64,000 nucleotides of DNA from Tetradesmus obliquus (taxonomy: Eukaryota > Chlorophyta > Chlorophyceae > Sphaeropleales > Scenedesmaceae): assembly GCA_030272155.1 (NCBI GenBank), contig CP126195.1, positions 6,183,001 through 6,247,000 on the forward strand. Reading direction: 5' to 3'. The notes under the pieces were generated by a model. It ran no database searches, was not told where the DNA came from, and saw only the letters and a program-made list of their open reading frames with translations. Shown here in pieces: positions 1 to 31,929 of this stretch (positions are counted from its first letter, which is position 1; each line of letters begins with the position of its first letter). The position numbers were made by a program, and so were the translations under genes.

Positions 1-255
1 GACGCAGACAGCAAGACAGCAATCAGCGATTCCAGCTGCTGCACAGTGAGTGCGATGTTGTTGTGCTGTTGCCTCGCGCGTGATCACACATCATTAGCGT
101 AAGGCCAGCAAAGTGTCTGGAATTCAAATCGCGTTGCGCAACACTGGTGCATGCTGTGTGCGCAGCGGGGATGCGACTGACGTGCACCTCTCTCTTTAAA
201 CCCATCCTCCCATCTTCTAGTACCCTGTGTCACCTGTCGCTGCCGCCTGCTGCAG

Positions 256-3200: not shown

Positions 3201-3484
3201 ACCCCGAGCCCAACCCCGACTACTGCCGCAAGGACGGCGACCAGTGCGGCGACGACCGCGACTGCTGCTACGGCTCGCGCTGCTGCTTCCCCCAGGGCAA
3301 GAGCAAGCTGGCCACCAAGCGCCTGGCAAAGCACGGCGGCCAGTGCACGCCTGTCACCTACGAGAAGTGTCACAAGGACTGCTACGATTACGAGTGTTAC
3401 GTTGAACGCAGCAAGGACTGCAACGCCTACTACGCCACGTCTGCCGCAAAGCTGTCGGCAACAGGCGCCAAGTACATGGTGTGA
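256..3484 (+). CDS. Cysteine-rich protein with DUF11-like domain, 5' partial
   Basis: Spliced gene running in from the left edge. Exons I can join: 256-444, 922-1141, 1503-1693, 1985-2491, 2648-2849 and 3156-3484 (stop TGA). Phases agree throughout and give at least 545 residues; the N-terminus is outside or not recognised. The second and third exons resemble the DUF11 beta-sandwich repeat: FTFTIEV, then ARNVVLEDEVPAGL, and finally GDYTNTAFVKTTSGDTNPNNNQD, whose asparagine-rich end is typical of the family. The rest is cysteine-rich, with repeats opening GACC or GDTC and CC pairs (GACCNS, GACCLE, GACCNV, GACCDT, DECCPG, RDCCYG), as in disulfide-knotted extracellular proteins. A wall or extracellular location is inferred; no signal peptide is visible because the start is missing. 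Introns are clean. Exact function unknown. The donor at 1142 could instead be at 1133 without changing phase. Confidence 0.75.
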
Positions 3485-7285: not shown

Positions 7286-8250
7286 ATGATGGTCGACTCT
7301 TCGGCCCTGTTGATGCCTACCAGCGCCAAGCAGGTGCGTGGGGCTTCGTTTCATGTGGCTAAGTTATTTTCTATGACGTTGGTGCTTGATCTTGGCGTGA
7401 GCTCTGAAACCCTGCCTGCTGCAGCAAGCAACCTCCAGCAGCAACCCTGCACGTCACTGCGCTGATGCTTCCTTCTGCCCAGATCAATCGACATGTGCCA
7501 TGCTCTGTAGTTTGAGTGAACCATATAGTCAAACAGGTGGCCTGGTTTATGCTGTCTTCTAGAACTACTGCTTGCAGTTGCACTGGTGCACCCCACCCTG
7601 TCCTGCCTGCCTTCCATTGGTATATTCCTGCAAGCGCCTGCCGTCATTGTTGACGCTTTTACTCACAGCAACTCCATCTTTGAACGTGTGCTTGCTATGT
7701 GCAGCTGCTGCGTGATGATGACAGCCTGCTGCGCCAGGTGTTCTTCAATGTGCTGCGCCACCACCACCCCAATACAGCAAACAAGGTGGACGTCATCTAC
7801 GCACTGTCTCAGGTGCGCTGCAGCAGTGTAGCGTAGCACACATTAAATACAGCAGCAGTGGCAGGGGCAGCGGCTGGGACAGGGCCGCACAGAAGAGCAG
7901 CAACAGTAGCCAGCCACAGCTGAGGTCCAGTCAGTGATAATCCGCAGCCATCATATGTAGGGCACTCAAGACATGCAGCAGCCGACGGGTACCACTTGTT
8001 GTGCGATGCAGCTAATCTAGCTGGTTTGCAGCTGGCGCACTTCAGCAGGTGCTGTTGGCTTCTGCCTTGTTGCTGCAACGGCAAAATACTCGCCATGCTG
8101 CTGGCGCAAGCCACGGGCGGCAGCGTGTGCGGCTTGCGCACAGCAGCACGCAGCTGGTTTGCAGGGCTTGCATTAATTTGCACTTGTTTGGGAGCGACGT
8201 GGAAGAGCCGGTGTTGCTGCCGCGTGCTCAACAGTTGCCGTACCTTGGCT

Positions 8251-8294
<44 letters not shown>

Positions 8295-8757
8295 TTTTGA
8301 GGGCGGTGGAGCGCTGTCAGCTGTGGGACATGGTCTGGCTGGTGGAATGTCTGACCATGGCGCTTGTCAGTGCTGCAACAAGCAATGTTTTTTTTTCATA
8401 AATCCCCTGCTGGCTTTGCTGCTGCAGGCATGGTGCAAGTGCAAGGATGACGACAACATTGAGCTGTTGTTGCATTCATGCTGCCGCAATCCTCTGTTGA
8501 CAACCTGCAGGCAATAATTCAGTTATGTGTAAAAAATGTCCTTGTGCTCTGTCTGCTGCCGCAGGCGTGGTGCAAGAGCAAGGATGACGGGGACTTTGAG
8601 CTGCTGGAGAAGTACCTGGGCAACCTCAAGCCAGAGGAGTGCATCCTGGTGCGCGGTGGCAGCAGCAGCAGCAGCAGCAGTAAACGCTAGCAGTGGCGCC
8701 AGCAGCAGCAGTAGGCGGTAGTGCGGCGCCTGCAACAACAGGACAGGGGTATGCCCT

Positions 8758-8794
<37 letters not shown>

Positions 8795-8803
8795 GATGTG
8801 GCC

Positions 8804-8849
<46 letters not shown>

Positions 8850-11807
8850 AAGCAGGAGCTGCAGGAATGCTGTTTTTAAAAACAGCAACAGCGAGCTGCT
8901 GCCTTGTCTCGAGGGACAGCGACGACAGCAGTTTGCTTGGTAGCATCGCTGACTGCAGCGGCATTTGCAGCCACAGCATCGTCAATTGCACGCCTGCAAG
9001 CAAAAATTAGTTGCGCATCTGCATCCCCAGCAGCTTCAGCCACATGCAAGGAGAACAACCTGTCAACACTGTTTAGTTTACGCTGACGCTGCTGTGCTTT
9101 GGCCCCGCCTGCTGTTTTTCTACTTCTGCTGCCTGCTGTATGCAGGTTGCCAGCAGCTTCAGCCACATGCTCAACCTGCACAACCTCACCGAGGAGGTGG
9201 CCAACACGCAGACGGAGCGCGCGGGGCGCATGGGCGAGGTGCGGCCGGTGGCTTGTCATGACGTGTCATCTCTAGTTGTTACATGTTAGCGTGTGGGGGA
9301 GGGGCGGCCGCTGGCAGAGTGCTCTGGTACTGCTTGTCTCCAGCTCTAGCACCTGCAGCAGTGTTGCTTTGTACACACCTGCCTGGTTTGCTATGACACA
9401 CACTGTTTGCCTCTGCTGACTCTCGCCCTCATGTATCCGCAGCTGACGGCGCCCACGCGCTCCACCAACACGAGCTTCATAAGGCTAGTCGCTTGTTCAC
9501 CTGCTGCCTGCTTGTCGCACTGCCTGGCTGCACTGCTTGGCTGCTGCCTCTGTTCCTGGTCTCATGCAGCTGACGCTGCCCACGCGCTCCACCAACATGA
9601 GCTTCATCAAGCTCACCAACCAGAACGGCGTGCCGGCGCAGAAGATCTACGAGGTGCGGCTGGCGGCGCTGCTGCTGCTGCTGCTGCTGCTTGGATCCGC
9701 AGACTGAATAGCTCACGTGGATATGGATCTTGTGTGTTGCGAGGCAGTGATTGTCAGCAGACTTGTCGGCTCAGAAGATCTACAACGTGCGGCTGGGGGC
9801 ACTGCCGTGGTTGGTCGCAAGTCAGCAGTTCTAAACATGAAGATCATTGGGCCGTTGTTGCAGCAGATGTACAATGTGTGGCTCGGCACGGCAGGGTAGT
9901 AGCAACAATACGGCATCCACTTACATGTTCACCTCCTGCTGCTGCCGCTGCTGCTGCCGCAGACGCTGTGCAGCCAGACGGTGGAGCTGGTGTTCACGGC
10001 GCACCCCACGCAGGCCTTCAGGCAGAGCCTGCTCAAGAAGTATGCACGGGTGCGCGGCGGTCGCCTGTTGCCCAGCAGCCGCATTGTCCGCATTGCTGCG
10101 TGATGCAAGTGCTGTTGTTACAGGCCAACTTTGATCTTGGCCAGCGCTTGTTGTTTTTGTGCTCTGAGTCCAGCTCCTACCATGTGCAGGCGCGCGGCTA
10201 CCTGGACCAGCTGCACAACAAGCAACGCCAAAATCATACACTATAATCTCACAAACAATTGTGTTTGCCTGCCGCATCATCATGATGAGCTGCACACACA
10301 CGCATCGACTGAACCTTATACAAAACCTCATAGACAGATGTGTTTGCCTGTTGCATTATAATGCCCGCTGCAGGTGCGCGGCTACCTTGACGAGCTGCAC
10401 AACAAGCGCATGTCGCCCTACGAGAAGATTGAGCTGCTGGAGGCCATCCGCGCGCAGGTGCAGGCGGCCTGGCGCACCGACGAGATCAGGCGCCAGAAGC
10501 CCACGCCGCAGGTGAGGCGGTATAGCAGATCGTATCATCCGGAATCGTACCAATTTCCACAAAAAAAATCATCTGCTGGTTAGTTTGGAGGGACCACAAG
10601 GCCACATCGCAGGTGATGTCTGGTGCAACTGAGATCATACCAAAGCACACCGCATTCATCCCCTGGTTTGATTTGAGGGAGCCACGGGCTGAGCTACTTC
10701 CAGCAGACCATCATGGACATGGTGCCCACCTTCTTCCATTGCATTAACCTTGCTTCTGTCCTTTGCCTTGCAGGACAAGATGCGCCATGGCCTGAGCTAC
10801 TTCCAGCAGACCATCAAGCACATGCTGCCCACCTCCCACCATATCAACTGCTGTGTTTGTCCTTTGTTTTTTGCAGGACGAGATGCGCCATGGCCCGAGC
10901 TACTTCCAGCAGACCATCATGGACATGGTGCCCACCTGCCACCATTGCAACCACTGTGTCTCAGCATGCTTTATTGTTTGTGCTGTGCCGCTCAGGACGA
11001 GATGCGCCACGGGCTGAGCTACTTCCAGCAGACCATCATGGACATGGTGCCCACCTTCTACCGGCGCGTGGACACAGCACTGGCCAACATCGGGCTGCCA
11101 AGGCTGCCCCTCAACCACCGTCTGTTTGAGTTTGGCTCCTGGATGGGCGGTGACAGGGACGGCAACCCTAATGTGACTGCGGGCACAACACGCGACGTGG
11201 TGGTGCTAGCCAGGTGGGGCTTTGGATCGGAATTGCAGCTTGGGGTTCTTTGTATGGCGGTTTGGGCTTCTGTGTGCTGCTGCTGCCTTGGGTGTTTTGC
11301 ATCGTGGGGGTGTTGGCCCCAGGTGGGGTTCTGGCCTGAGGCTTTTGCCGTTGTGTCGAACCACCGGCTGTTTGAATTTGGCTCACAAATGGGTGGCGAC
11401 AGGGCCGGCAACCCTAACGTGACTGCAGGCACAACACGCGACGTGGTGGTGCTGGCCAGGTGGGGTTTTGGCCTGAGGTTCTGCCAGCTTATGGTTTGAT
11501 GCCTTGCAGTTTGGGGTTCTGTAGTTTGTAGCAGCTTCCTGGGGCCCAGGGCTGAGAGTTGATGATATCTGCAATCGCCAGGTAGGTTCGAGGTTTGTGT
11601 TCCAGCTGCCTGGCCGTGTCATGCAGTGATGCACAGCGGCCTTCCCTTCAAAGCCGCAATGCTTCAATCTCCTTGGCTGCTGATTATGCTCGATTCCTTG
11701 TGCGTGTTCCCTGCTGCAGGCTGGAGGCGGTCAACGCGTACTTCCAGGCTGTGGAGACGCTCATGTTTGACCTCAGCATCTGGCGCTGCAGGTGAGCCGC
11801 GCAGCAG

Positions 11808-11839
<32 letters not shown>

Positions 11840-12784
11840 CTGCAACAGCAGCGCTGCAACAGTAGGGTGACAGCAGCAGTTGCGTGGTGTGGCGCTTTCG
11901 ACCTCAGCATCTAGCATTGCACGTCGGGCAGCCACAAGGTCCATGGCTTTGTGGCAGCACAGCCGCAGCAGTCGCAGCAGCAGCAGCAGCAGCAGTGGCT
12001 GCAGCAGCAGCTGTGACGTTAGGAAGTCGCAGGACCTGCTGCCTGCTTTTATATGACGCCGCCGCCTGCATGGCCGCCTGTCTCACGCATCTGCCGCAGC
12101 CCTGAGCTCAAGGCGCTGGCGCGCCGCCTGGCTTGTGCTCAACACTGCCTTCTCACTGCACCTAATTTTCTGTGTCTCCTGCTGCCTTTGCTGCTGCTGC
12201 TGCTGTCGCAGCCCCGAGCTCAAGGCGCTGGCGCGCCGCCTGGCTGCCCGTGCTGTGGCGGCTGACCCGGGGCGCGTGGCTGAGGAGCGCAAGAAGCGCA
12301 ACTACGCCGACTTCTGGACACCCATTGCGGCCAACGAGCCGTTCAGGGTGGTGCTGAGCCACATGCGCGACAGGTGCGGGGCCTGCAGCGCTGCAGGGGG
12401 AGATTTGCAGGTTGTGAGAGGGTGTGCGGGGTGTGCGGGGAGATGAACACAGAGTGTTGTGACGATATTTAAATATGTGCTGGGGTGATGTCTATTGTCA
12501 AAGCTTGTGAGTATCCTGGTGTCCCCACTTAGGGGAGTGCAAGAAGCGCAACTACGCAGAATCCAGGACGCCCTTTGCGGCCAACGAGTCGTGTAGGGTG
12601 GTGCTCAGCCACATGCGCGACAGGTGCGGCGCGCGCTGTGCCGTCATCTCTGTATGATCTCTGCAGCAAGGTGTCAAAAGAGCAGCAGAGACCACTTCCG
12701 CTGTGTGTTGTATGGAACGTTGTGATGGTGTGCTGGGTAACTCCTTTACCCCACTGAGGCCCTCGTTCTAGTTTGCACTCATTA

Positions 12785-12838
<54 letters not shown>

Positions 12839-15800
12839 GCTGCCGCCCGCTCAGGCTGTGGCAGACGCGCGAGGTGCTGCACCAGTGCCTCATCAACCCG
12901 CAGCTCAGCGTGAGGCAGGCGCTGCTGGACACAGACAGCTACCTGGACGTGCAGGTGGGCAAATGGCACAGCTGAAACTCTGTAAGCTTACACAGACAGC
13001 TACCTGGACGTGCAGGTGCATGTGTGGGAGGGGGCAGGGAGCGGGGATGCCACATGCCAGGCAACACATGTGGTGTGAAGAGGCATGGTGCGGGCATGAT
13101 CGCAAGGATGGCACGCAGTCAGTGCATCAGCACTGGCAGCGTTGCAGCCATGCACATGCCAGTTTGGTGCAGCGGATGCCTGTGCTACCATTGCACACAC
13201 GCAACAGATGCGTGCGCGGTTTGCCACCCGGAGACACGCCTGTGCTGGGGTCGCAGTGTCTGCTGTGCTTGTTACTAGCACATGTCACAATGTTACACTG
13301 GTTACATTGTCATGCTGCCGTGCCTGCAGGAGCTGTTTGAGCCGCTGCACCTGATGTACACCAGCCTGCTGTCGACTGGCGATGAGAGCACCGCCAACCA
13401 CAAGCTGCTGGACACGCTGCGCCAGGTGGGGACTGGCTGGCAATTGCAAACACTGTTGGCACAGTGGCCCTCAGGGCGCCACTGCTGCGAGCTGTGCGCT
13501 TTAAACACGTGCCTGAGTAACGCGCAGCAGCCGATGACACTCGATCGTAGGGTTTTGGATGGGCAGAGGCTGATGCGCAATTGCTTCCTGGGCGCCGCTG
13601 TTGCGGAGCTGTGCGCTGCATATACAAAGACAGTGCCAAACAGCACTCTGCTGTGAAAACACGCCTGATTATTGTCTCCCTGCCGCCCTTTGTGCTGAGT
13701 GCTTGTTTGTGACGCGCTGCTGCTGTGCTTTGCCCGTGTTTCTGCTGCTGCCGTTGCCGCTGCTGCTGTGCAGGTGCAGACGTTTGGGCTGTCTCTGATG
13801 AAGCTGGACATCCGCCAGGAGTCCACGCGCCACGCAGAGGTAAGCGGCATGGAAGTGGGGATAACAGGACTCGCCTTCCCCTTTCAAAAGGACGATATTA
13901 CAGTGACAGCACAGTTACGCACCTTCAAGCAATGCTGGACCAGCAGAAACCGCCCAGAGTCTTCTGATGCTTTTGTTTGATGTGCATACCTCCTGCTGCA
14001 AACATACACACAAACTAAGCCCTTTTCATGTCAACATGCAGGTGATTGACGCCATCATGCGCCACCTGGAGCTGGGCAGCTTCCTGACCTCATGGATATC
14101 GCGTCAACATCAGCACATAACTGCCATTGCGGCTGCCCTGTTTCTTGCACCCTGCAGGTGACCGACGCCATCACGCGCAACCTGCAGCTGCTGCACACTT
14201 GACATTCATGAGCACCTCGTGAACATGCATGTGCATGCGCTGCGGCTTGCATGTGCCCTGCAGGTGATTTACGCCATCACGCGCCACCTGGGGCTGAGCA
14301 GCTTCCTGGCCTCATAAGCACGCCTGCTCCTTTCTAAACATGCGCGCTTGCCTGTAGCTGCTTCTATTACTTGTTCCTGCTCCTCACGAAACATAAACAT
14401 GCACAAACTCGCACTTTCTATGCTATCACACAGGTGATTGACGCCATCACGCGTCACCTGGAGCTGGGCTCCTTCCTGGCCTGGCCCGAGGAGCAGCGCA
14501 CGTCATGGCTGCTGGGGGAGCTGGCTGGCAGGCGCCCGCTGTTCCCGCCAGGGATTGAGCTCAGCCCTGATGAGGCGGAGGTGGTCACCACCTTCAGGTG
14601 GGGTTTGGCTTCTGGCCTCAAGGGTTCAGAGGTGCTGTGATTGCGCATTGGCTAGCAGGGTGTGGCTGCTGTTCCCGCCAGGCATAGAGCTGTGAGCCCA
14701 GATGATACGGAGGTGGTCACCCCCTTCAGGTGGGGTTTGGGGGTTATGAAGCACAGCGGTTTAACTATGCTTGCAGGACGCTGCTGTACACAGCTGCTGT
14801 ACATGATCAGCTGCTACGCCCGCTGCTCATACAAAACAAGTGCATAGGAGGCTGTACGTTGCTGCTTTCTGACCACACGTACATGCTGCTTGCCCGCCCC
14901 GCAGGACGCTGGCGGAGCTGCCCACGGACTCGCTGCACAGTTACATATCAACATGACGCTGTGTACACCAGTTCTTGATTACCTTGCGTCTGATCGACCT
15001 GACACGGGGTGATGTGTTGCTGCTGCCTTGCAGGACGCTTGCGGAGCTGCCCACGGACTCGCTGCACAGCTACATCATCAGCATGACGCGCACCGCCAGC
15101 GACGTGCTGGGCGTGGTGCTGCTGATGCGCGAGTGTGGCATGACAGAGCTGCTCAAGGGTGCGCTGCGAGGGTTTGAATTGTTGAGGGTTCAGGGTTTTG
15201 GTGTTCACTGGGTTGTGGGGGTTCAGGGCGCTGCCTTATGGGCAGATGCTGTGGTGCTGGATGACTTTGTTGCTTGTCCTTGAGGGTTTGACACCTGTCT
15301 TCTGCATCCCCTGTCCATGGCTTGCTCGTTGCTGCAACATTATTGGCCCCTAGTTCAAAAAGCCAGTGCATCTGAACAACAGCAGTGCCACCCCAGGCTG
15401 CTGCCTGCCTCGTGATCTGTGACTCATGTCGCCTCACTTCTCTGTGTATTCCTGCAGTGGCGCCTCTCTTCTAGACTGGACGACCTGCACAACGCCCTAC
15501 ATGATGAAAGATGACTGACACTGCCTCATGCCTTCCTCTGTCCTGCAGTGGCTCCCCTGTTTGAGACGCTTGATGACCTGCACAACGCGCCCGGCACCAT
15601 CCAGACGCTGCTGGGCAGCGAGTGGTACAAGGGCCACATCAGCGAGCACCACGACGGCGTGCAGGAGTGCATGATCGGTGAGTGGCGGGCTGCAGCAGTG
15701 CGTGGTGGGTGAGTGGCGGGCTGCAGGAGTGCATGATTGGTGATTGGTGGGCTGCAGGAGTGCATGAACAATGATTGGCGGGCTGCAGGAGTGCATGATC

Positions 15801-18800
15801 GGTGAGTGGCGGGCTGCAGCAGTGCATGATGACGGCAAGAACGTGCACCCTCACACAATTGCGGCGCATTGCAAACCCGACTCGTACCTACGGTGCCTGT
15901 AACACATCTTTCTGCACGCTTCCACCGCGGCCCACAGGCTACTCCGACTCGGGCAAGGACGCGGGCCGCATGTATGCCGCCCCTGCTTGCAACGCTCTTC
16001 GCTGTGCTGCTACTCTTGCTGCGATGTAACTGTGCAGCCCTGCTGCCACCCCTCCGCTGTGTTGCACCCTCCGGCAGGGAGCGCCTTGGGCCCCACATTT
16101 GCCTACCAGCTGCCATTTTGCTGTGTTTCGCTGTGCACTCAATGCTGCCCGTGACTGCGCCGCACTCTGCAGGCTACTCCGACTCGGGCAAGGACGCGGG
16201 CCGCATGGCAGCCGCCTGGGCGCTGTTTGAGACGCAGGAGCGCATCGTGGCGGTGGCTGAGCAGCACGGCGTGCGCCTCATCCTGTTCCACGGCCGCGGC
16301 GGCAGCGTGGGGCGCGGCGGCGGGCCCACACACATGGCGATCAGGTCGCAGCCGCCGGCAACCATCAAGGTGGGTTTAGGGTTGATGTGATGCAGCAGGG
16401 CTGCGGCTGCTGCTGTTGGCGCCGTTGTCCTTATGTGCTCGTGTCTGTGCTTGTGCAGTGCTGTTTCTGTCTGCCTTAGCACCTGATATGCTGTCGTGGC
16501 TGCATGCGCCTGCAACGCTGCTGTCAGCAGCTCTGCCTCTCGTCATGTGTCTCTCTGCCTCTCACACAAACCTCGCAGGGAAAGCTGTTGTGAAAATCCA
16601 GGGCAGCACTTTCTGTCCTTCCCTCTCTCTTCCACTTTCTCACTCTCTTTTATTCCTTCCTCCTTCACAAACACAAACCCCGCAGGGCAAGCTGCGCGTG
16701 CCATCCAGGGCAGCACTCTATGTCCTTCTGTATCTTCCTTTCTCAATCTCTTTCCGCCGTTCCTTCCTGTTCCTGGCGCAAACACAAACCCTGCAGGGCA
16801 AGCTGCGTGTGACCATCCAGGGCAAAACCATTTGCATCTGCGTTTTCTCTCTTCCTTCTTCTCTTTCACTCACACGCTTCTTGATACCTTCTCCCCTCGC
16901 CCCGCAGGGCAAGCTGCGCGTGACCATCCAGGGCGAGACCATCGAGCAGCAGTTTGGCGAGCGCGAGGTGTGCTTCCGCACGCTGGACCTGTACACCAGC
17001 GCAGTGCTGGAGGCCTGCCTGGACCCGCCCAGCGCAGCACTGCCGGAGTGGCGGGAGCTCATGAACCAGCTCAGCGAGACATCCTGCAAGGTGCGGATGC
17101 TGCTACAGATGTTTGTTGCAGTGTTTCTTGTTGCGGCTATGCTTGTGGCGGCTAAGGTGGCTGCAGCGGCATGCGTCGGGCGGTGCAGGATGGTTTGTGC
17201 CTTCGCCTCACTCATTCTACCCCTCTCCTCACGCTTTTTCGCCCGCAGGTGTACCGCAGCTACGTGTTCCAGCGCCCGGAGTGCCTAGAGTACTTAAACC
17301 TGGCCTCACACTTCCTCTCAAGGCAAGTCGCCTCTCACACTTCATGTCACACTTCCTCTGCCTTGTCTCACATTATCCCTTCCCGTAGGTGTACCGCAGC
17401 TACGTGTTTCAGCGCCTCGAGTGCCTGGAGTATTTCAACCTGGCCTCACACCTCCTCTCAAGGCAAGCCGCGTCTCACACTTCATCTCACACTTCCTCTG
17501 CCTTGTCTCACACTTTCCCTCCCCGGCAGGTGTGCCGCAGCTATGTCTTCCAGCGGCCCGAGTTCCTGGAGTACTTCAACCTGGCCTCACACTTTCTCTT
17601 CCTCCGCCTCACCCTTTCTAACCTTCTCTCTCACTCTTTTTCTCCCGCAGGTGTACCGCAGCTACGTGTTCCAGCGCCCCGAGTTCCTGGAGTACTTCAA
17701 CCTGGCCTCACACTTTCCTTTTTCTCTCTTCTCACTCTTTTTCCCTTTTCCCTCGCTCTTTTCCCTCACTCTTTTTTGTCCCGCAGGTGTACCGCAGCTA
17801 CGTGTTCCAGCGGCCCGAGTTCCTGGAGTACTTCAACCTGGCCACGCCCGTGGGGGAGCTGGGCCGGCTCAACATTGGCAGCCGGCCTGCCAGCCGCAAG
17901 CAGACCAGCGGCATCGAGGGCCTGCGCGCCATCCCGTGGGTGTTTGCGTGGACGCAGACGCGCTTCCACCTGCCGGTGAGTTCAGTGGTTGCATGGATGA
18001 TCTGTTGGTTGCATCGCTAGCTATTTGGGTTGTAGAAGCTTTAAATGTTGGCGCACCAAAATTCCCTGGGTGTTTGCGTGGCCGCAGACGCGCTTCCACC
18101 TGCCGGTGAGGAGTTAACTCATGCTGGCTGGCTTGACTGATTGACTGGTTGGTTGCTGGTAGGATGGGTGCGTGATGGCCGGCACGCCATCCCCTGGGTC
18201 TTTGCACAGACGCAGACGCGCTTCCACCTGCCGGTGAATTCAGTGGTTGCATGGATGATCTGTTGGTTGCATCGCTAGCTATTTGGGTTATGGAAGCTTT
18301 GAATGGTTGGCGCGCCATCCCCTGGGTGTTTGCGTGGACGCAGACGCGCTTCCACCTGCCGGTGAGTTCAGTGGTTGCATGGATGTCTGTTGGTTGCATC
18401 GCTAGCTATTTGGGTTGTAGAAGCTTCAAATGGTTGGCGCGCCATCCCCTGGGTGTTTGCATGGCCGCAGACGCGCTTCCACCTGCCGGTGAGGAGTTAT
18501 ACATGCTGGCTGGCTTGACTGATTGACTGGTTGGTTGCTGGTTTGATGGGTTTGTGATGGGCTGCGCGCCATCCCCTGGGTCTTCGTATGGAAGCAGACG
18601 CGCTTCCACCTTCCGGTGAGAAACGAGTTGTGCTGGCTGGCTTGATTGATTGATTGATTGACTGGTTGGTCGCTGGTTTGATGGGTGTGTGGTGGGCTGC
18701 GTGCCATTCCCTGGGTCTTCGTGTGGAAGCAGACGGCGCTTCCACCTGCCGGAGAGAAATCAGTTATGCTGGCTGGCTTGACTGGTTGGCTGGTTGTTTG

Positions 18801-21800
18801 ATGGCTTGTTGCTGTGTGTTGGGCTTCGCGCCATCCCCTGGGTCTTCGAGTGGATGCAGACGCGCTTCCACCTGCCGGTGAGAAATCATGCATGCTGGCT
18901 GGCGTGTGACTGGATGACTGGATGGTTGCTGTGTGTTGGGTGTGGGTGTGTGATGGGCGGCGCGCCATATCTTGGGTCTTTGCGTGGACGCAGACGCGCT
19001 TCCACCTGCCGATAAGTTGTTGGATGGCTTGATCGGTTGGTGTGTTGGATGGTTGGATGATTGTAGGGTGGAATGGTTGACGCAGACGCGCTTCCACCTT
19101 CCGGTGAGAAATCAGTTATGCTGGCTGGCTTGACTGATTGACTGGCTGGTTGGTTGCTGTTTTGATGGGTGTGTGATGGGCGGCGCGCCATCCCCTGGGT
19201 GTTTGCGTGGACGCAGATGCGCTTCCACCTGCCGGGAGCTGCATTGATGGCTGAAATAAGGTTTGAACAGTGGACTGAATGGATGATTGCATGATTTGAC
19301 CGCTGGATGATTGGTGTACAGAGATGACTGGATGGTCAATCGCACATGCGTGTACACATCTTCATAAGAAATAGCCACATATCTCTGCTTGCAACCACAA
19401 CTGCAGCTGTGGCTGGGCATTGGTGACGCGCTGGCCGAGGCGGTGGAGCAGGGCAAGCTGCCGCTGCTGCAGGCCATGCAACCGCAAAGTAACATCCCCC
19501 TGTGCCGCCGCATTTGCAACTGCTGCAGGTTTGACTGGGCATCCTCGACGCGCTGGCTGAGGCGAATGGAGCAGGGCAAGCTGCCGCTGCTGCAGGCCAT
19601 GCAACTGCAACATAACCACATGTTTGCCTGTTCCACTGCAACTGCCGCAGGTGTGGCTGGGCATTGGTGACGCGTTGGCTGAGGCGGTGGAGCATGACAA
19701 GCTGCCGCTGCTGCAGGCCATGCTACTGCAACATCACCATCTCGCTACTCTATCTGCAACTGCTGCAGGTGTGGCTGGGCATCGGTGACGCGCTGGCTGA
19801 GGCAGTGGAGCAGGGCAAGCTGCCGCTGCTGCAGGCCATGTATGATGAGTGGCCCTTCTTCAGGGGGCTGCTGGACCTGGTGGAGATGGTCATGGCCAAG
19901 GCAGACCCCAAAGTCACATCCATGTATGATGCAAAGCTGGTGCGGCCGGAGCTGCAGGTGAGGCACGCCGGTTGCTTGTGTGTTGGGTTTTTCTTGGCTG
20001 TTGTTGTGTGTTCACTAGTACGCCTTGAGCTGCAAGTGGCGCCTGTTTGACAATTGTGTTGGCAACCGGGGGCTGCTGGACCTGGTGGAGATGGTCATGG
20101 CCAAAGCAGACCCCAAGGTCACATCCATGTATGATGCAAAGCTCGTGCGGCCGGAGCTGCAGGTGAGGAATGCTGGTTGCTTGAATTGGGTTCGTGGTTT
20201 CTTTCACAGCTTGATTCCTGCTGGTGAGACCTTTTGGGGTTGCAGGCTTTGCGGTTTTGTTGGCAGTGGGGTCTCCTGGACCTGGTGGAGATGGTTATGG
20301 CCAAGGCTGACCCCAAAGTCACATCCATGTATGATGCGAAATTGGTGCGGCCGGAGCTGCAGGTGAGGTGCTTACATGTTGGGATTGGTGTTTCTTTAAC
20401 GCAGGTGGGGCCATGTTTGAGTAGCAGGCTCTGTTTATTTCTTGACAGTTGGGGTTGCTGGACCTGGTGGAGATGGTCATGGCCAAGGCAGACCCAAAGT
20501 CACGTCCATGTATGATGCGAAATTGGTGCGGCCAGAGCTGCAGGTGAGGCCCTTGTTGTTGGTACCTTTGTTTGTTGCACTTTGTGCAGGTCAACTGTGT
20601 GGCGGCCCATCTGGGGTGGCAAATCATGAAATGGTTTTGTGTCCTGAATCTTCTTTGGCAGTGGGCGCTGCTGGGCCTGTTGGAGATGGTCACGTCCAAG
20701 GCAGACCCCACAGTCACAGCCATTTGATCAGCTGTGCGCCAAGCTTGGTGTCTGTCTCACGCCTCAACAGATGCACACTCACACCACGGCTGTGCTGCCT
20801 TAGCTAGTACGTGCAGGCACTGGATGACGAGCTGCGCGCCAAGTGTGGTGCCGCCAAGGCGGGCGTTTTGTCTGTGTCATGCCTTAGTACGTGCACACGT
20901 CTGCTGCTGCCTTTTGCTGCTGCCCTCCCTTGTGTTCCATGTTCTTTTGCTTGCAAGCGCTTGGTGGCGAGCTGCGCGCCAAGTCTGGCGCCACCATCAA
21001 CATGCATACACATGTGTAAATGGCTGCTGCGCTGCCTCATCTTCTGTTCGCAGGCTTTGGGCGATGAGCTGCGCGCCAAGTTTGGTGCCACCAAGGCGCA
21101 GGTGTTGTCTGTCTCATATGCTGATTTGCACACTCATTCAACTGCTGTGCTTCGTCTGCCTTGTATCCGCAGGCTTTGGGCGATGAGCTGCGCGCCAAGT
21201 TTGGTGCCACCAAGGCGCAGGTGTTGTCTGTCTCAAGCCCCAACAAATGCACACACACGGCCGCTGCGCTGCCTAATCTACTATGTGATCTCTGTCCCAT
21301 CTCCTGCTTGCAGGCGCTGGGTGACGAGCTGCGCGCCAAGTTTGGTGCCACCAAGGCGCAGGTGCTGGCCATTGTGAGGCAGGACGAGCTGCTGGAGGAC
21401 CCCAGCAATGGCGCCAGCCCAGAGCTTGACGAGAAGATCAGGCTGCGCGCACCCTATGTTGCACCGCTGAACGTGCTGCAGGTTAGTTTGGCTTTTGAAT
21501 TCGATGTAAGAGGTTTAAGCATGTCATCGGCTCTGCATGCCCCTTTGCGCCGTTTTTTAAAGCGCTGCAAGTTTTTGTGGCTTTTGAGTTGGTTGAAGAA
21601 TATGTTTGCAAGCAGCGGGGCTGCTGGAGGACCCCAGCAATGGCGCAAGCCCAGAGCTCGATGAGAAGATCAGGCTGCGTGCATCCTATGTTGCACCGCT
21701 GAACGTGCTGCAGGTTGGTGCTGCTAGTCCTGTTTGTCTTATAGAAAGCAGAATATCCGGCTCTGCATTTCCCTTGTTGCGTCGTGTAATGCGGTGCAGT

Positions 21801-22831
21801 TCTTTGTGGCTTTTGAAATCGGGTTTTTTCGTCGGGCCTGTAAGCTGTAGAGCTGCTGGAGGACCCCTTCAATGGCGCCAGCCCAGAGCTGGATGAGAAG
21901 ATCCGGCTGCGCGCGCCTTATGTTGCGCCGCTCAACGTGCTGCAGGTTAGTTTGGCTTTGGTGTTCGGCTTAAGATGTTTCAAGCATCTCACTGCCTCTG
22001 CATGCCCCGTGTTGCGCCGTTCATAGCGCAGCAGCTTTGGGTTTGGTTGTGGCTTTGGGGTGTGGTTGAAGAATATGTTTGCAAGCAGCGCAGATGCTGG
22101 AGGGCCCCAGCAATGGCGCCTGCCAGTGAGCTCGTTAAAAAGATCCGGCTGCGCGCGCCATACGTGGCCCTGCTCAACGTGCTGCAGGTTGGTGCTGCTG
22201 TAGCCAACATTTGCAGACGCTGCGCCTCTATGGGAGTACAATGCTGGCATCGTACTCCCACAGAAGCGCAGCGTCTGCAGCTGTTGATTACCGCAGCAAC
22301 AACCTGCAGCACATTGAGCAGCGCGCCGTCTGCTTAATAGCGTCATATGCCTCCACTGCCCTCCGTTTGGTCAAGAGGTGCAGACATTGTGCAACCTTAC
22401 GCAGGTTTGACGCGGCCGACAGCTCCGGCCCGCGCGCAGGCTACCAGCCCAGCGAGGTAGAAATCATCGAGCTGCCAAAGCCTCGTCCCTCCCACCAAAC
22501 GTGCACGCGTTGCTCACCAGATGTGATCAACAATGCAGTTGGCTGCGGCACTTTTTTGCCCACAATCACAACTGTGCTAGTACTCAACTACATCACTCCC
22601 GTGCCGTGCTTGTTGTGTCTGCAGGTGCAGACGCTGTGCAACCTGCGCGAGTTTGATGCAGCCGGCAGCTCCGGCCCGCGCGCAAACTACCAGCCCAGCG
22701 AGACAGAAATCATCGAGCTGCTGTCCAGGGACCCGCACAGGGACGGCAAGCACCCCTTCCAAGCAGCCATGGATGACTGCCTGATGATCACCATCAAGGG
22801 CGTGGCAGCCGGCATGCAGAACACAGGGTAG
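7286..22831 (+). CDS. Phosphoenolpyruvate carboxylase, plant-type (22 exons)
   Basis: PEP carboxylase converts phosphoenolpyruvate and bicarbonate to oxaloacetate and phosphate (anaplerotic carbon entry; plant-type enzymes are normally cytosolic). Exons: 7286-7333, 7705-7812, 8565-8648, 9146-9238, 9570-9653, 9963-10049, 10374-10511, 10996-11213, 11720-11791, 12212-12373, 12855-12954, 13330-13425, 13774-13839, 14434-14597, 15034-15158, 15549-15677, 16173-16369, 16908-17090, 17787-17975, 19769-19957, 21314-21481, 22625-22831. They sum to 2907 nt, 968 residues, the usual family length. Signatures: VFTAHPTQ with the catalytic His, [54 protein letters not shown] and the C-terminal QNTG typical of plant-type enzymes. 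The first exon ([16 protein letters not shown]) is the least certain and lacks the N-terminal phospho-Ser motif of land plants. Almost every intron carries tandem copies of adjacent exon edges (see separate entries). TGTAA at 23351-23355 is a possible poly(A) signal. Confidence 0.95.
8254..8842 (+). repeat. (CAG)n tracts in PEP carboxylase introns
   Basis: Uninterrupted or nearly uninterrupted CAG runs lie at about 8254-8291, 8659-8681, 8758-8790 and 8804-8842, on both sides of exon 3. A further CTG run of about 17 units sits at 12786-12837, just before the exon 11 acceptor. They are intronic in the gene model. Confidence 0.95.
8428..8466 (+). repeat. Echo of exon 3 5' edge
   Basis: A CAG acceptor followed by a diverged copy of the start of exon 3 ([13 protein letters not shown] against [13 protein letters not shown]), about 140 bp upstream of the true exon. 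Confidence 0.85.
9443..9888 (+). repeat. Echoes around exon 5
   Basis: Upstream, 9443-9483 copies the acceptor and exon start ([12 protein letters not shown] against [12 protein letters not shown]). Downstream, 9770-9797 and about 9861-9888 copy the exon's 3' edge (AQKIYN-VRL and QQMYN-VWL against AQKIYE-VRL) with the donor region decayed. The upstream copy is the better preserved. Confidence 0.75.
10190..10223 (+). repeat. Echo of exon 7 5' edge
   Basis: A CAG acceptor plus [11 protein letters not shown], a copy of the exon 7 start [11 protein letters not shown], about 185 bp upstream of the real exon. Confidence 0.85.
10682..10936 (+). repeat. Three echoes of exon 8 5' edge
   Basis: Copies at 10682-10734, 10774-10833 and 10877-10936, period about 105 bp, precede the real exon at 10996. 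Each carries [15 protein letters not shown] or a variant, and the last two keep the CAG acceptor. All three leave the exon sequence at nearly the same point, after the MVPT codons, and run into a shared intronic stretch, so they descend from one junction. Confidence 0.9.
11359..11459 (+). repeat. Echo of exon 8 3' edge
   Basis: A copy of about 100 bp of the end of exon 8 ([20 protein letters not shown]...), ending in CAG before GTGGGG exactly as in the true exon. The conserved GDRDGNPN motif has become GDRAGNPN. Confidence 0.92.
12100..12623 (+). repeat. Echoes flanking exon 10
   Basis: Upstream copy 12100-12131 repeats the acceptor and [11 protein letters not shown]. Downstream copy of about 12533-12623 repeats [29 protein letters not shown] with the CAG-GTGCGG donor; this copy has lost the conserved tryptophan region. 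The true exon is 12212-12373. Confidence 0.88.
12991..13014 (+). repeat. Echo of exon 11 3' edge
   Basis: A 24 bp perfect copy of the last codons TDSYLDVQ with the following GT donor, 36 bp downstream of the true exon end. Confidence 0.85.
13914..13942 (+). repeat. Short dispersed repeat
   Basis: A 29 bp stretch in a PEP carboxylase intron recurs at 55041-55069 with 3 mismatches (begins GTTACGCACCTTCAAGCA). The family is unknown. Confidence 0.55.
14042..14315 (+). repeat. Three echoes of exon 14 5' edge
   Basis: Copies at 14042-14092, 14158-14193 and 14264-14315 each start after CAG with [15 protein letters not shown] or a variant. The true exon starts at 14434. All acceptors are intact. 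Confidence 0.9.
14665..14728 (+). repeat. Echo of exon 14 3' edge
   Basis: A copy of LLFPPGIEL...VVTPFR ending in CAG before GTGGGG like the true donor at 14597. An internal TGA in the frame shows it is not translated as such. Confidence 0.88.
14905..14956 (+). repeat. Echo of exon 15 5' edge
   Basis: CAG acceptor plus [14 protein letters not shown], about 130 bp upstream of the true exon at 15034. A fainter copy of the same junction may begin at about 14778. Confidence 0.88.
15458..15832 (+). repeat. Echo of exon 16 start and 31 bp donor minisatellite after exon 16
   Basis: Upstream, 15458-15497 is a decayed copy of the exon 16 start ([13 protein letters not shown]). Downstream, the exon end plus its donor has become a minisatellite of about 31 bp spanning 15660-15832, around six units of GCAGGAGTGCATGATCGGTG followed by AGTGGCGGGCT. 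Several units keep the GTGAGT donor, others read GTGATT or AATGATT. Confidence 0.9.
15938..15972 (+). repeat. Echo of exon 17 5' edge
   Basis: CAG acceptor plus [12 protein letters not shown], identical to the catalytic signature at the start of exon 17, 235 bp upstream of the true acceptor at 16172. Confidence 0.92.
16579..16829 (+). repeat. Three echoes of exon 18 5' edge
   Basis: Copies at 16579-16607, 16686-16714 and 16797-16829, period about 110 bp, precede exon 18 at 16908. They read [10 protein letters not shown], a frameshifted GKLRV, and [12 protein letters not shown]; the copy nearest the exon is the best preserved. CAG acceptors are kept in all three. Confidence 0.92.
17249..17710 (+). 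repeat. Four echoes of exon 19 5' edge
   Basis: Copies start at 17249, 17389, 17530 and 17651, the true exon at 17787. Each has a pyrimidine tract, an AG acceptor (CAG, TAG, CAG, CAG) and about 60 nt of exon encoding [19 protein letters not shown]. All leave the exon at the same point, where CTGGCC continues as TCACAC. Confidence 0.95.
17976..19235 (+). repeat. Ten echoes of exon 19 3' edge (donor array)
   Basis: After the true exon end at 17975, copies of [16 protein letters not shown] plus the downstream intron repeat every 90-134 bp, ending at about 18105, 18233, 18361, 18488, 18615, 18751, 18877, 19011, 19103 and 19235. Seven keep a GT donor at the junction (GTGAG or GTGAA); the copies ending 18751, 19011 and 19235 do not. 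With the true one there are 11 copies, and they fill most of a 1.8 kb intron. Confidence 0.95.
19407..19722 (+). repeat. Three echoes of exon 20 5' edge
   Basis: Copies start at 19407, 19529 and 19651 (period 122 bp), each after CAG and reading [21 protein letters not shown] or a variant. The true exon starts at 19769. Confidence 0.93.
20069..20725 (+). repeat. Four echoes of exon 20 3' edge
   Basis: Copies 20069-20162, 20270-20362, 20451-20543 and a decayed 20666-20725 repeat [20 protein letters not shown]...RPELQ. The first three end in CAG-GTGAGG exactly like the true donor at 19957. Confidence 0.93.
20817..21220 (+). repeat. Four echoes of exon 21 5' edge, two shaped as 48 nt cassettes
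   Basis: Copies at 20817, 20956, 21054 and 21173 precede exon 21 at 21314; a fifth trace may lie near 20728. The copies 21054-21101 and 21173-21220 are exactly 48 nt between a CAG acceptor and a CAG-GTGTTG junction. They encode [16 protein letters not shown] in the same phase as the true exon. Confidence 0.92.
21617..22187 (+). repeat. Three echoes of exon 21 3' edge
   Basis: Copies ending at 21713, 21945 and 22187 (period about 235 bp) repeat [21 protein letters not shown]...PLNVLQ with a following GTTGG or GTTAG donor like the true one (21481). Confidence 0.92.
22170..22321. repeat. 152 bp palindrome built on an exon 21 echo
   Basis: 22170-22245 pairs with 22246-22321 with about 8-9 mismatches and a loop of about 2 nt. 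The left arm contains the end of the third exon 21 echo (LLNVLQ and its donor), so the right arm is an inverted copy of a splice junction. Its core is GCAGACGCTGCGC at 22213-22225 against its complement at 22266-22278. Confidence 0.9.
22378..22475 (+). repeat. Echo of exon 22 5' edge
   Basis: A degraded copy of VQTLCNL...[21 protein letters not shown] with small insertions, 247 bp upstream of the true exon at 22625. Confidence 0.88.
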
Positions 22832-25128: not shown

Positions 25129-26672
25129 CACCTTGTTTGGTGGAGATTGAGGGAACGTCCCCCGCAGGTTTGTGAAGTGATGGCAGTGACAGTGCTGCCA
25201 GCAGCAGCATGGTGTGGCAGGAGATGATCTTTGTTCCTTGTTTGGTGGAGATTGAGGGAACGGGTTTTTGGGCAGGCGCAGCCTCCTCAATCTCACACCT
25301 TGTTTGGTGGAGATTGAGGGAACGTCCCCCGCAGAGATGAAAGTGATTGCAGTAGCAGCGGCCGCAGAAGCACCTTGTTTGGTGGAGATTGAGGGAACGT
25401 CCCCCCCAGGTCACACCTTGTTTGGTGGAGATTGAGGGAACGTCCCCCGCAGAGATGAAAGTGATTGCAGTGGCAGCGCCGCCAGCAGCAGCAGTGTAGC
25501 GAGGCTCCTGGCTTGCTTGGCATGGCAGTTTGCATGAGTATGGTTTTTGGGCAGGCGCAGCCTCCTCCATCTCACACCTTGTTTGGTGGAGATTGAGGGA
25601 ACGTCCCCCGCAGAGATGAAAGTGATTGCAGTGGCAGCGCCGCCAGCAGCAGCAGTGTAGCGAGGCTCCTGGCTTGCTTGGCATGGCAGTTTGCATGAGT
25701 ATGGTTTTTGGGCAGGCGCAGCCTCCTCAATCTCACACCTTGTTTGGTGGAGATTGAGGGAACGTCCCCCGCAGAGATGAAAGTGATTGCAGTGGCAGCG
25801 CCGCCAGCAGCAGCAGTGTAGCGAGGCTCCTGGCTTGCTTGGCATGGCAGTTTGCATGAGTATGGTTTTTGGGCAGGCGCAGCCTCCTCCATCTCACACC
25901 TTGTTTGGTGGAGATTGAGGGAACGTCCCCCGCAGAGATGAAAGTGATTGCAGTGGCAGCGCCGCCAGCAGCAGCAGTGTAGCGAGGCTCCTGGCTTGCT
26001 TGGCATGGCAGTTTGCATGAGTATGGTTTTTGGGCAGGCGCAGCCTCCTCAATCTCACACCTTGTTTGGTGGAGATTGAGGGAACGTCCCCCGCAGAGAT
26101 GAAAGTGATGCAGTGGCAGCGCCGCCAGCAGCAGCAGTGTAGCGAGGCTCCTGGCTTGCTTGGCATGGCAGTTTGCATGAGTATGGTTTTTGGGCAGGCG
26201 CAGCCTCCTCCATCTCACACCTTGTTTGGTGGAGATTGAGGGAACGTCCCCCGCAGAGATGAAAGTGATTGCAGTGGCAGCGCCGCCAGCAGCAGCAGTG
26301 TAGCGAGGCTCCTGGCTTGCTTGGCATGGCAGTTTGCATGAGTATGGTTTTTGGGCAGGCGCAGCCTCCTCAATCTCACACCTTGTTTGGTGGAGATTGA
26401 GGGAACGTCCCCCGCAGAGATGAAAGTGATTGCAGTGGCAGCGCCGCCAGCAGCAGCAGTGTAGCGAGGCTCCTGGCTTGCTTGGCATGGCAGTTTGCAT
26501 GAGTATGGTTTTTGGGCAGGCGCAGCCTCCTCAATCTCACACCTTGTTTGGTGGAGATTGAGGGAACGTCCCCCGCAGGTTTGTGAAGTGATGGCAGTGA
26601 CAGTGCTGCCAGCAGCAGCATGGTGTGGCAGGAGATGATCTTTGTTCCTTGTTTGGTGGAGATTGAGGGGTT
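25129..26672. repeat. 161 bp satellite array with 322 bp higher-order period
   Basis: Seven unit-length repeats run from 25416 to 26541, starting at 25416, 25577, 25738, 25899, 26060, 26220 and 26381; one unit is 160 bp through a single-base deletion near 26109. Each unit begins CCTTGTTTGGTGGAGATTGA. The base in CCTCC(C/A)TCTC alternates C, A, C, A, C, A and then A, which implies a dimeric unit. A different 107 bp flank unit (CCTTG...GCATGGTGTGGCAGGAG...) stands on both sides, at about 25133-25239 and 26542-26648, with shorter partial units between 25240 and 25415. Since 161 is not a multiple of 3, minus-strand frames rotate through the array and stay open; I regard them as non-coding. Confidence 0.95.
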
Positions 26673-29922: not shown

Positions 29923-31366
29923 TTAGCCAAGGATCCTGGCGGAGTTGACGCCGGCAATGTTGGTCACTGCAAGGAAAGTTCGGCATAGCAGCAGCAGCAG
30001 CAGCATAGACAAAGGTTAGCAAGTGGCTCAGCACCACAGTATGCTGCGTGCAGCAGTATCAGCCCCCGCCCTCCGCCACAGCTCTGACTATGCATCCTGT
30101 ACTCAATGCCTGCTACACCCATAACACAGCTGCAGCTGACATGCAAACGGAAGCCATGTGGTGAACCCATGCAACAACCAACACCCACGTCACGCACGAT
30201 ACACAAATGAAGCACATTCATCGTAAATATTATCTGCTGGCTCACCGGCGTTGTTGGCGGCGGGGTCAGCCAGGTGGTCGGCAGTTAGGCGCTGTAGTGA
30301 ACATTCACAACATCTAAATGCACAACACGTATAGCAACCCTCGGCACTCAGCGCAGCGAAACCATCTCAGCTCTGCAGATTTCTCACCGGCGTTGTTGGC
30401 GGTGGGGTCGGCCAGGTGGTCGGCCAGATTCTCCAGGGGGCCCTTGCCAGTGACCAGGCCCTGCAGCAGCAGCAGCAGCAGCAGCAGGAACAGGCGTCAG
30501 ATTTGTTTGTGTCGTACTCTGTGGTAGGACATGCTGTGGAAGTGAGACTTCTGGTGGAGCTGCATCCACAACACGACATGCACGCGGCTAAGCCACTTTG
30601 AACACCCAGCCAGCCAGCCAGCCAGCCAGACAGACAGACAGCCAACCAGCCAACCAGCCAGCCAGCAGCAGCAGCGCTTCACCTGCACCAGGAAGCCCAG
30701 GAAGCCGACCATCGCGAGGCGCGCATTCTTCACCTCCTTGACCTGCAATGCAGCAGCAGCAGCAGCATGTGTCGGCGCACAACACCTGTCTGATGGCAGC
30801 GCGAAGGGAATGGCCGATTCTTTACACCAAGAGCTGCAGCAACAGATGCCGCAACACATGTCGCGCTCTGCAGTGCACTGCACAAACGTTGCACAAGAAA
30901 CGTACCTCGCGGCCAGGCATGCATGCACACGAATGCTGAATTAAACCAGCTGTCCGCAATGCAGGCTGGTAACGCAATATTACAATATATATGGCACGCC
31001 GCCTCACCTTGAGCTCGGCAAAGGTGTCGGGGTCCTCACACACGCCCAGGGGGTCCCAGCCGGGGTACAGGGTGTCATAGGGACTGCAGGGGTGGCAGGG
31101 AGAAGGCGGCAGGGGAGCAGCAAAGCAGCGGCAGCAGCAGCAGCAGTGTGTGATGGTGCGGAGTTGGGGGTCCCAGCCGGGGTACAGGGTGTCATACGGG
31201 CTGAAGGGGTGACAGGGGTGGCGGGGAGCAGGCGGCAGGGATGAAGAAAGCAGCAGCAGCAACAGCAGCAGCAGCAGTGTTTGAGGGTACGGAGTTGGGG
31301 TACAGCGTGTCATACGGGCTGCAGGCGTGGCAGGGGTGGCGGGGAGCAGGCGGCAGGGATGAAGAA

Positions 31367-31397
<31 letters not shown>

Positions 31398-31894
31398 GCA
31401 GTGTTTGAGGGTACGGAGTTGGGGTCCCGTGTGTCATACGACTGCAGGGGTGACAGCGTGAGGCGGCGGCAGGGGTGACAGAAGCAGCAGCAGCAGCAGC
31501 AGCGTGTGAGGGTAAATACAGGCTTGTAGGTGAGTCACGCGCAGAAAGGGCGTATGGGGTTCATACCAGCACTCATACACATCAGGTGCGCAGCTATGCT
31601 TTTACCATGCGTAGAATCGCTCTATTTACATCCACCTCTCCATTCAGGACCACACGCATGTTCAGTGGCGGTCACTCCCGAAGCTCGGCTAGCAGCACAC
31701 TCCAGCAGGATTTTGCCTTTGTGCTGGCATGTTGGACACAGACATTTGGCAGCATGTATATGCGTGTATTATATGTATATATCTGTGCCGGGCCTCACCC
31801 GTCGAAGCCGCCGCCGCCGCCGTTGTAGCGCCACACCTCAACAGCGCCCAGGATCAGGATCTGCGGTGGTTTGGTTAAGGGATTGGTTGTTGGT

Positions 31895-31929
<35 letters not shown>

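What the first reader, a model, noticed from the sequence alone, without database searches (positions are those of the whole stretch)
7286..22831. PEP carboxylase introns are filled with tandem 'echoes' of the adjacent exon edges and splice sites
About 55 partial copies of exon ends occur in this one gene, flanking most of its 22 exons. They follow a rule: copies of an exon's 5' edge, with acceptor, lie only upstream of it; copies of its 3' edge, with donor, lie only downstream. One complete exon survives in each array and the joined product has normal length (968 aa). This is not ordinary exon duplication, because whole exons are not copied; the unit is the junction plus neighbouring intron. 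I know of no named phenomenon that fits. It could be a gene-selective junction amplification process, or a decoy splice-site layer that tunes splicing.
Basis: partly seen in the sequence, partly recalled or inferred. Interest (0 to 1): 0.93.

Follow-up and report, generated by a model that had tools for sequence, protein, structure and literature searches.

The report
Genome-wide exon-edge echoes in algal introns
In the green alga Tetradesmus obliquus, introns of several genes, most strikingly a PEP carboxylase gene, are swollen by repeated, decaying partial copies of the neighbouring exon's edge; the strict upstream/downstream order follows from the geometry of short tandem duplications across splice junctions, but why the exon pieces stay so alike while the intron around them drifts is unexplained.

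Summary
The gene is a complete 22-exon, 968-aa PEP carboxylase of Tetradesmus obliquus. At E<=1e-3, 49 partial exon copies lie in its introns, all same-strand and next to their parent exon: 27 exon starts upstream, 22 exon ends downstream, no exception. Arrays hold 62% of its intron bases. It is not one gene: the neighbouring LHC gene has 4 arrays, and in 19 arbitrary 10-kb stretches 19 of 102 confidently predicted exons have such copies (36 copies; none reversed after dropping 4 predicted exons that are themselves copies). A PEPC paralogue (0 of 20 exons) and four other LHC loci (0 of 13) have none. The polarity needs no special rule: a tandem duplication across one junction leaves its truncated copy on the intron side. 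Copies show no codon bias in their private changes and lose splice sites at about the drift rate, so they look like neutral debris, not decoys. Two things stay odd: homology usually stops near the splice site although exon parts are about 90% alike, and arrays without a junction are nearly absent. I favour tandem duplication plus gene conversion; copying of exon edges alone is not excluded.

The parts
7286..22831 (+). PEP carboxylase gene (PEPC1), 22 exons, 968 aa
8417..8606 (+). array, acceptor side of exon 3 (8565-8648)
9027..9170 (+). array, acceptor side of exon 4 (9146-9238)
9439..9613 (+). array, acceptor side of exon 5 (9570-9653)
9631..9805 (+). array, donor side of exon 5
10185..10407 (+). 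array, acceptor side of exon 7 (10374-10511)
10681..11062 (+). array, acceptor side of exon 8 (10996-11213), 3 copies
11113..11485 (+). array, donor side of exon 8
12091..12245 (+). array, acceptor side of exon 10 (12212-12373)
12284..12632 (+). array, donor side of exon 10
12929..13018 (+). array, donor side of exon 11 (12855-12954)
14009..14482 (+). array, acceptor side of exon 14 (14434-14597), 3 copies
14522..14740 (+). array, donor side of exon 14
14901..15089 (+). array, acceptor side of exon 15 (15034-15158)
15450..15588 (+). array, acceptor side of exon 16 (15549-15677)
15660..15831 (+). array, donor side of exon 16, 31-bp period, 5.5 copies
15935..16216 (+). array, acceptor side of exon 17 (16173-16369)
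16564..16942 (+). array, acceptor side of exon 18 (16908-17090)
17200..17843 (+). array, acceptor side of exon 19 (17787-17975), 4 copies
17916..19235 (+). array, donor side of exon 19, 10 copies
19401..19840 (+). array, acceptor side of exon 20 (19769-19957), 3 copies
19863..20723 (+). array, donor side of exon 20, 4 copies
20746..21367 (+). array, acceptor side of exon 21 (21314-21481), 4 copies; 68-bp exact run shared by two copies, starting at 21049 and 21168
21386..22199 (+). array, donor side of exon 21, 3 copies
22376..22721 (+). array, acceptor side of exon 22 (22625-22831)
29923..34288 (-). neighbouring chlorophyll a/b-binding (LHC) gene, 12 exons, 261 aa, with the same kind of arrays
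32766..32956 (-). LHC array, donor side of exon 6
32187..32440 (-). LHC array, donor side of exon 7, 2 copies
31049..31514 (-). LHC array, acceptor side of exon 9
30241..30424 (-). LHC array, donor side of exon 11

Best explanation
Short stretches of this alga's genome (tens to about 250 bp) are repeatedly duplicated in tandem. A unit that crosses one splice junction carries an exon piece plus intron. Only an arrangement with one unbroken exon survives selection, so the truncated copy must lie on the intron side: exon starts upstream, exon ends downstream (geometry). Once two copies exist, unequal exchange multiplies them into arrays. The outer copies are presumably spliced out with the intron and decay without constraint. 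Over time the intron parts lose their likeness faster than the exon parts, which I infer are refreshed now and then by gene conversion among the copies and with the functional exon. Shown: the arrays, their polarity, occurrence at many loci of the genome, locality (all exons within the window; exon 20 genome-wide), neutral private changes. Inferred: tandem duplication as founding event of every array, exchange, conversion, and that copies are spliced out.
For: Polarity 49 of 49 in PEPC1; at E<1e-7, 5 of 5 edge copies in LHC and 36 of 36 in the arbitrary stretches after the drops told below. Exon 20 in the whole genome gives 8 matches, itself and its 7 neighbours. Head-to-tail units: in 43 of 72 neighbouring pairs the alignment, often through several units and at 69-98% identity, spans at least 0.9 of the period. 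In young arrays exon and intron parts are about equally alike: L027 100% and 100%; L022_g1 exon 92-100%, spacer 94-96%; L014_g0 exon 96-98%, spacer 97-98% except its first pair, 79%. Flank homology of the outermost copy in 17 of 51 arrays. Private changes 44:52:56 by codon position; changes shared by several copies 22:13:70 (by subtraction), as expected if inherited from a coding exon. The real exon's branch is 0-0.066 long in 8 arrays. Conversion: two copies of the exon 21 start share a 68-bp exact run while their spacers beyond it are not significantly alike (p 0.11).
Against: A uniform clock predicts about 0.83 identity on the intron side (simulation); 0.63-0.79 is seen against a null of 0.60-0.72. 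Flank homology in 17 of 51 arrays, and 6 of 19 with exon parts >=93% alike, where about 0.65 of 50 was expected. In 20 of 28 alignable one-copy arrays the match reaches at most 12 nt into the intron. In L027 three exon starts of 54 nt are identical and two spacers are identical, yet the sequence before the first copy is unlike the spacer (p 0.70). 28 of 28 arrays in the two hand-modelled genes include a junction, against 0.65-0.72 in simulations of random placement, which used 25 copy-free introns of mean 257 bp. The four-gamete test gave no excess of incompatible sites in any of 8 arrays, with 0-4 informative sites each. The 68-bp run could also come from a recent exchange rather than conversion.
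Confidence: 0.55

Rival explanations
1. Founding copies are not tandem duplications: a process copies the edge of an exon, cut at or within about 10-20 nt of the splice site, into the adjacent intron (for example repair of staggered breaks with filler, or an RNA-templated step). Ordinary tandem amplification follows.
For: In 20 of 28 alignable one-copy arrays the match reaches 0-12 nt into the intron while its exon part is 34-100 nt (identity 73-98%; 3 more of the 31 one-copy arrays gave no alignment). Ungapped likeness beyond the junction falls to a small excess over null by about 20 nt (25 acceptor and 24 donor arrays). L027. Intron-only arrays nearly absent: 0 of 28; 1 of 13 components in 43 confident introns of the arbitrary stretches.
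Against: 17 of 51 arrays do show intron-flank homology and 8 of 28 one-copy arrays extend 18-300 nt. Excess over null at 6-15 nt is not zero, and donor arrays keep a small excess to 40 nt. The L027 spacer has no other home in the genome, so a filler's origin would be unknown. I know of no printed mechanism with this edge precision (recall).
Confidence: 0.25
2. Plain tandem duplication with no conversion: introns simply mutate and gain or lose bases several times faster than exon-like sequence, erasing intron homology and intron-only arrays.
For: Spacers carry about four times as many indels per site as exon parts (0.094 against 0.023). Only 6 of 32 introns (5 of 21 and 1 of 11) keep repeats detectable without exon-like sequence, so intron-only arrays would be missed more often than junction arrays.
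Against: Inside arrays substitutions differ little between exon part and spacer (0.119 against 0.148, from gapped alignments that flatter spacers). Copies are themselves intronic and should share the intron's rate. L027 has 100% exon identity with an unrelated flank.
Confidence: 0.12
3. The copies are kept by selection as decoy splice sites or alternative exons that tune splicing.
For: Most copies keep their splice dinucleotide (46 of 52). Two copies before exon 21 could be read as 48-nt in-frame exons with a possible donor (sequence).
Against: Retention is about what drift gives (84%). Private changes show no codon constraint, and 24 indels were counted, 22 of them single-base. The protein record of another strain has the same 968-residue length. 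Other genes of the same families have none.
Confidence: 0.06
4. Assembly artefact.
For: Tandem arrays are a known weak point of assemblies (general knowledge).
Against: Copies differ by 0-20% from the exon, mostly by several percent, which duplicated or collapsed reads do not produce; the same pattern occurs on seven contigs in the arbitrary stretches.
Confidence: 0.02

Closest known systems
Tandem duplication across an intron-exon boundary in a potato RdRp gene (Ma, Lan and Niu 2016, PMC4974935; Results section and passages read)
   Same: Duplicated unit is the 3' side of an intron plus the 5' side of the next exon; a truncated exon copy ends up upstream of the full exon; splice signals come with the copy.
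   Different: One event, two copies, both acceptors used and a new intron gained. Here arrays of up to 10 copies on both exon sides at many loci, with the normal product length, and intron homology at the outermost copy often missing.
[quoted passage not shown]
   Same: Tandem duplication places exon sequence inside an intron.
   Different: There the unit is exonic and makes a new intron; here existing introns grow and the copies carry the existing acceptor or donor.
Introners (PMC9860276, three passages read)
   Same: Genome-wide and intron-associated; reported mainly from fast-evolving lineages such as green algae.
   Different: Introners are dispersed element families, some with 3-9 bp target duplications; here the one spacer and the one exon searched genome-wide were found only at their own locus.
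Tandem exon duplication giving mutually exclusive exons (recalled, no call)
   Same: Local, same-strand copies of exon sequence with splice sites.
   Different: Whole exons are copied there; in PEPC1 and LHC only edges, with no codon constraint on the copies' private changes in PEPC1.
Small tandem duplications at breaks with 3' overhangs (PMC8355091, abstract and outline seen)
   Same: A source of short tandem duplications with a known biochemical route.
   Different: The abstract and outline describe human and mouse cells and say nothing of splice junctions.

Membership tests
Junction-crossing tandem duplication (potato RdRp type) | truncated exon copy on the intron side, same strand, adjacent | tested here: met
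   49 of 49 in PEPC1; 36 of 36 in arbitrary stretches at E<1e-7 after dropping 4 copy-like predicted exons
Junction-crossing tandem duplication (potato RdRp type) | intron part duplicated with the exon part | tested here: inconclusive
   17 of 51 arrays at p<=0.01; full-unit likeness in young arrays; absent at the L027 first flank; at most 12 nt in 20 of 28 one-copy arrays
Junction-crossing tandem duplication (potato RdRp type) | creates a new spliced intron | not testable with these tools
   no RNA data; product length 968 aa also in another strain's record
Rogers AGGT intron gain | duplicated unit lies wholly in exon | tested here: not met
   copies reach the splice site and keep AG or GT in 46 of 52
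Introners | same element in many unrelated introns | tested here: not met
   L027 spacer: only its own 2 copies in the genome (one spacer tested); spacers of different PEPC1 arrays 0.62 identical in 126 pairs, the baseline
Tandem exon duplication | complete exon copied | tested here: not met
   0 whole-exon copies in PEPC1 and LHC. Another window gene (49.7-51.9 kb, -) has two predicted 99-nt exons 93% alike over their whole length
Tandem exon duplication | copies under coding constraint | tested here: not met
   private changes 44:52:56 by codon position, p 0.48 (PEPC1)
Ordinary minisatellite arrays | placement independent of exon edges | tested here: not met
   28 of 28 arrays include a junction in two genes; 0.65-0.72 in simulated random placement; part of the gap is lost detectability of intron repeats

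The most novel reading that the evidence does not exclude
A mutational or recombination process in Tetradesmus preferentially copies or refreshes exon edges up to the splice site and deposits them in the flanking intron, making exon 'echoing' a genome-wide engine of intron growth that differs from tandem duplication, introners and exon duplication.
Probability: 0.25. Interest if true: 0.85.

Novelty: new variant of a known kind. Interest (0 to 1): 0.6.

Why it matters
It offers a directly visible route by which introns grow: 62% of this gene's intron bases lie in such arrays, and T. obliquus has mean introns of 462 bp against 230-302 in four other green algae (table in PMC5966456, passages read). 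The arrays keep old copies of coding sequence next to the working exon, so neutral and constrained evolution of the same sequence can be compared and gene conversion measured over tens of bases. They also set a natural test of exon definition: the spliceosome must pick the right junction among up to eleven near copies. Gene finders may stumble over them: mine called several copies as exons.

Tried and rejected
Codon-phase rule for the inner breakpoint: a first impression by eye that copies end at codon boundaries was not borne out, 9:11:6 on each side. Spacer as a dispersed element: L027 spacer found only in its own array. Recombination among copies by four-gamete test: no excess, too few sites. 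Selection on copy splice sites: retention about equals drift. Constraint on copies as coding sequence: none seen. The Raphidocelis PEPC is longer (1050 aa), but the extra length is an N-terminal extension plus a short alanine-rich insert, not repeated exon edges. Ten literature searches showed no paper on such arrays in algae among the rows they listed (the lists were capped); preprints and most subscription journals are not in that library.

Rows dropped before counts. Four predicted exons that are themselves copies (L014 three, L024 one); loci L010, L013 and L028 (low-complexity or weak hits); one L027 entry; predicted exons of the other window genes. Before any drop, at E<=1e-4, the arbitrary stretches had 106 exons, 42 with a match: starts 17 upstream and 3 downstream, ends 29 downstream and 12 upstream, plus 36 internal and 6 whole-exon same-strand matches and 19 on the other strand. 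At E<1e-7 five reversed ones remain, 3 starts downstream and 2 ends upstream, all belonging to three of the four dropped exons. The other window genes: 28 predicted exons, 6 with matches, among them 5 end copies downstream, 3 whole-exon matches and several internal or opposite-strand ones, mostly in low-complexity sequence. The PEPC paralogue had one internal opposite-strand match. One search's 12 junction components include some repeats lying inside coding exons (L011, L027), so its true junction count is lower.
Full report
WHAT IS THERE. The window lies in contig C5 (6183001-6247000) of a 104.7-Mb, 17-contig genome. The PEPC protein matches Tetradesmus obliquus record OEZ85_003241 over its whole length, listed as 100%; letter by letter it differs at 3 of 968 residues, so the window probably comes from another strain (inference). 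I rebuilt 22 exons with GT-AG borders, giving 968 aa and a full-length PEPcase match.

COPIES. Exons searched against the exon-masked window gave 49 copies at E<=1e-3: all on the coding strand, all in the adjacent intron, 27 exon starts upstream and 22 exon ends downstream. 57 exon-like stretches appear at E<=0.1 in the adjacent introns. Grouped, they form 24 arrays in 19 of 21 introns whose spans hold 62% of the gene's 12,639 intron bases. In a whole-genome search exon 20 matches only itself and its seven neighbours (the tool scored a single candidate stretch).

NOT ONE GENE. The LHC gene at 29923-34288 (-) has 4 such arrays. I took 19 stretches of 10 kb at fixed positions: 1 Mb into each of 17 contigs and 3 Mb into two. 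15 carry local direct repeats and 4 none; inverted ones total 8. A simple gene finder, trained on the two hand models and on its own best predictions, found at its working threshold 20 of 22 PEPC1 exons exactly, with 6 extra calls, and 7 of 12 LHC exons with none extra. On the stretches, 19 of 102 confident exons in 11 of 28 gene fragments have edge copies at E<1e-7, 36 copies in all, none reversed; these numbers follow the drops told under Tried and rejected. Seven predicted proteins from those 11 fragments were checked: five carry Pfam domains (glutamate-cysteine ligase, UBA, Oxidored_FMN, U5 116-kDa component, AAA_12), two none. A PEPC paralogue (20 exons) and fragments of four other LHC loci (13 exons) have no edge copies. 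So the process is widespread but uneven.

WHY THE POLARITY. If a tandem duplication takes in the end of an intron and the start of an exon, the result reads intron tail, exon start, intron tail, exon start, rest of exon. The unbroken exon is the downstream one; the truncated copy can only be upstream. The mirror image holds for exon ends. Duplications breaking the exon are lost by selection. The rule is geometry plus purifying selection (reasoning, not a test).

HOW THE COPIES EVOLVE. Changes private to one copy are spread evenly over codon positions (44:52:56, p 0.48), while changes shared by several copies are third-position heavy (22:13:70 by subtraction), so copies seem to inherit the coding exon's synonymous changes and then drift. 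Splice dinucleotides are kept in 46 of 52 copies against 84% expected.

WHAT DOES NOT FIT PLAIN TANDEM DUPLICATION. Over 39 acceptor and 44 donor copies, exon parts are about 0.9 alike near the junction while intron sides are near null. A simulation with one clock predicts 0.83 on the intron side and would leave intron-only arrays 88-98% detectable; none is seen among 28 arrays. The sequence beside the outermost copy resembles the spacers of its own array in 17 of 51 arrays, and in 6 of 19 whose exon part is at least 93% alike, while about 0.65 was expected (50 arrays simulated). Of 31 one-copy arrays, 28 could be aligned through the junction: 20 matches reach at most 12 nt into the intron, 8 reach 18-300 nt. 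L027 is the sharpest case: three identical 54-nt exon starts, two identical 83-nt spacers, and an unrelated first flank. Against these, inside arrays exon parts and spacers differ at similar substitution rates (0.119 and 0.148), with four times more indels in spacers, and only 6 of 32 introns keep repeats detectable without exon-like sequence. So part of the missing intron homology, and part of the junction bias, is loss of detectability.

INTERPRETATION. I favour recurrent short tandem duplication, array growth by exchange, decay in introns, and occasional gene conversion among exon pieces. The best direct sign of conversion is a 68-bp exact run shared by two neighbouring copies of the exon 21 start whose spacers beyond it are not significantly alike; a recent exchange would look the same, and a four-gamete test on 8 arrays showed no excess. 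The main rival, copying of exon edges alone, cannot be excluded here.

KNOWN AND NEW. A single tandem duplication across an intron-exon boundary that made a new intron is in print for potato (PMC4974935). Introners differ by being dispersed families (PMC9860276). T. obliquus has longer introns than four other green algae in the table of PMC5966456; such arrays may be one cause (inference). The rows listed by ten searches held no report of arrays like these. I rate it a new variant of a known kind, with an unexplained edge.

Noticed in passing
window 25411-26620: Satellite of 161-bp units, 7.5 copies, 98% alike, downstream of the PEPC gene.
   Followed up: no
window 22159-22332: Inverted repeat in PEPC intron 21: arms of 86 nt, 84% complementary, 2 nt apart; its left arm begins inside the last exon-21 copy, so it holds an inverted piece of an exon edge.
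   Followed up: partly
window 21049-21116 and 21168-21235: Two copies of the exon 21 start, identical over 68 bp, are followed by a possible donor and could be read as 48-nt in-frame cassette exons (sequence; run length).
   Followed up: partly
window 35375-35497: (CAAAA)n tract, 24.6 copies, 99%.
   Followed up: no
window 49686-51890 (-): Another minus-strand gene shows repeated coding-like segments, exon-end copies, and two predicted 99-nt exons 93% alike over their whole length.
   Followed up: partly
window 22685 (exon 22, codon 921): The window's exon reads Asn, the OEZ85 strain Gly; the intronic copy of this exon start in the window has GGC (Gly) there, as if the exon changed after the copy was made or was converted.
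   Followed up: partly
L027 2818-2954 (-): The youngest array seen (100% identical units) sits in a gene matching the U5 snRNP 116-kDa GTPase, itself a splicing factor.
   Followed up: no
window 244-3481 (+): Coding segments, several rich in cysteine, unidentified, upstream of the PEPC gene.
   Followed up: no
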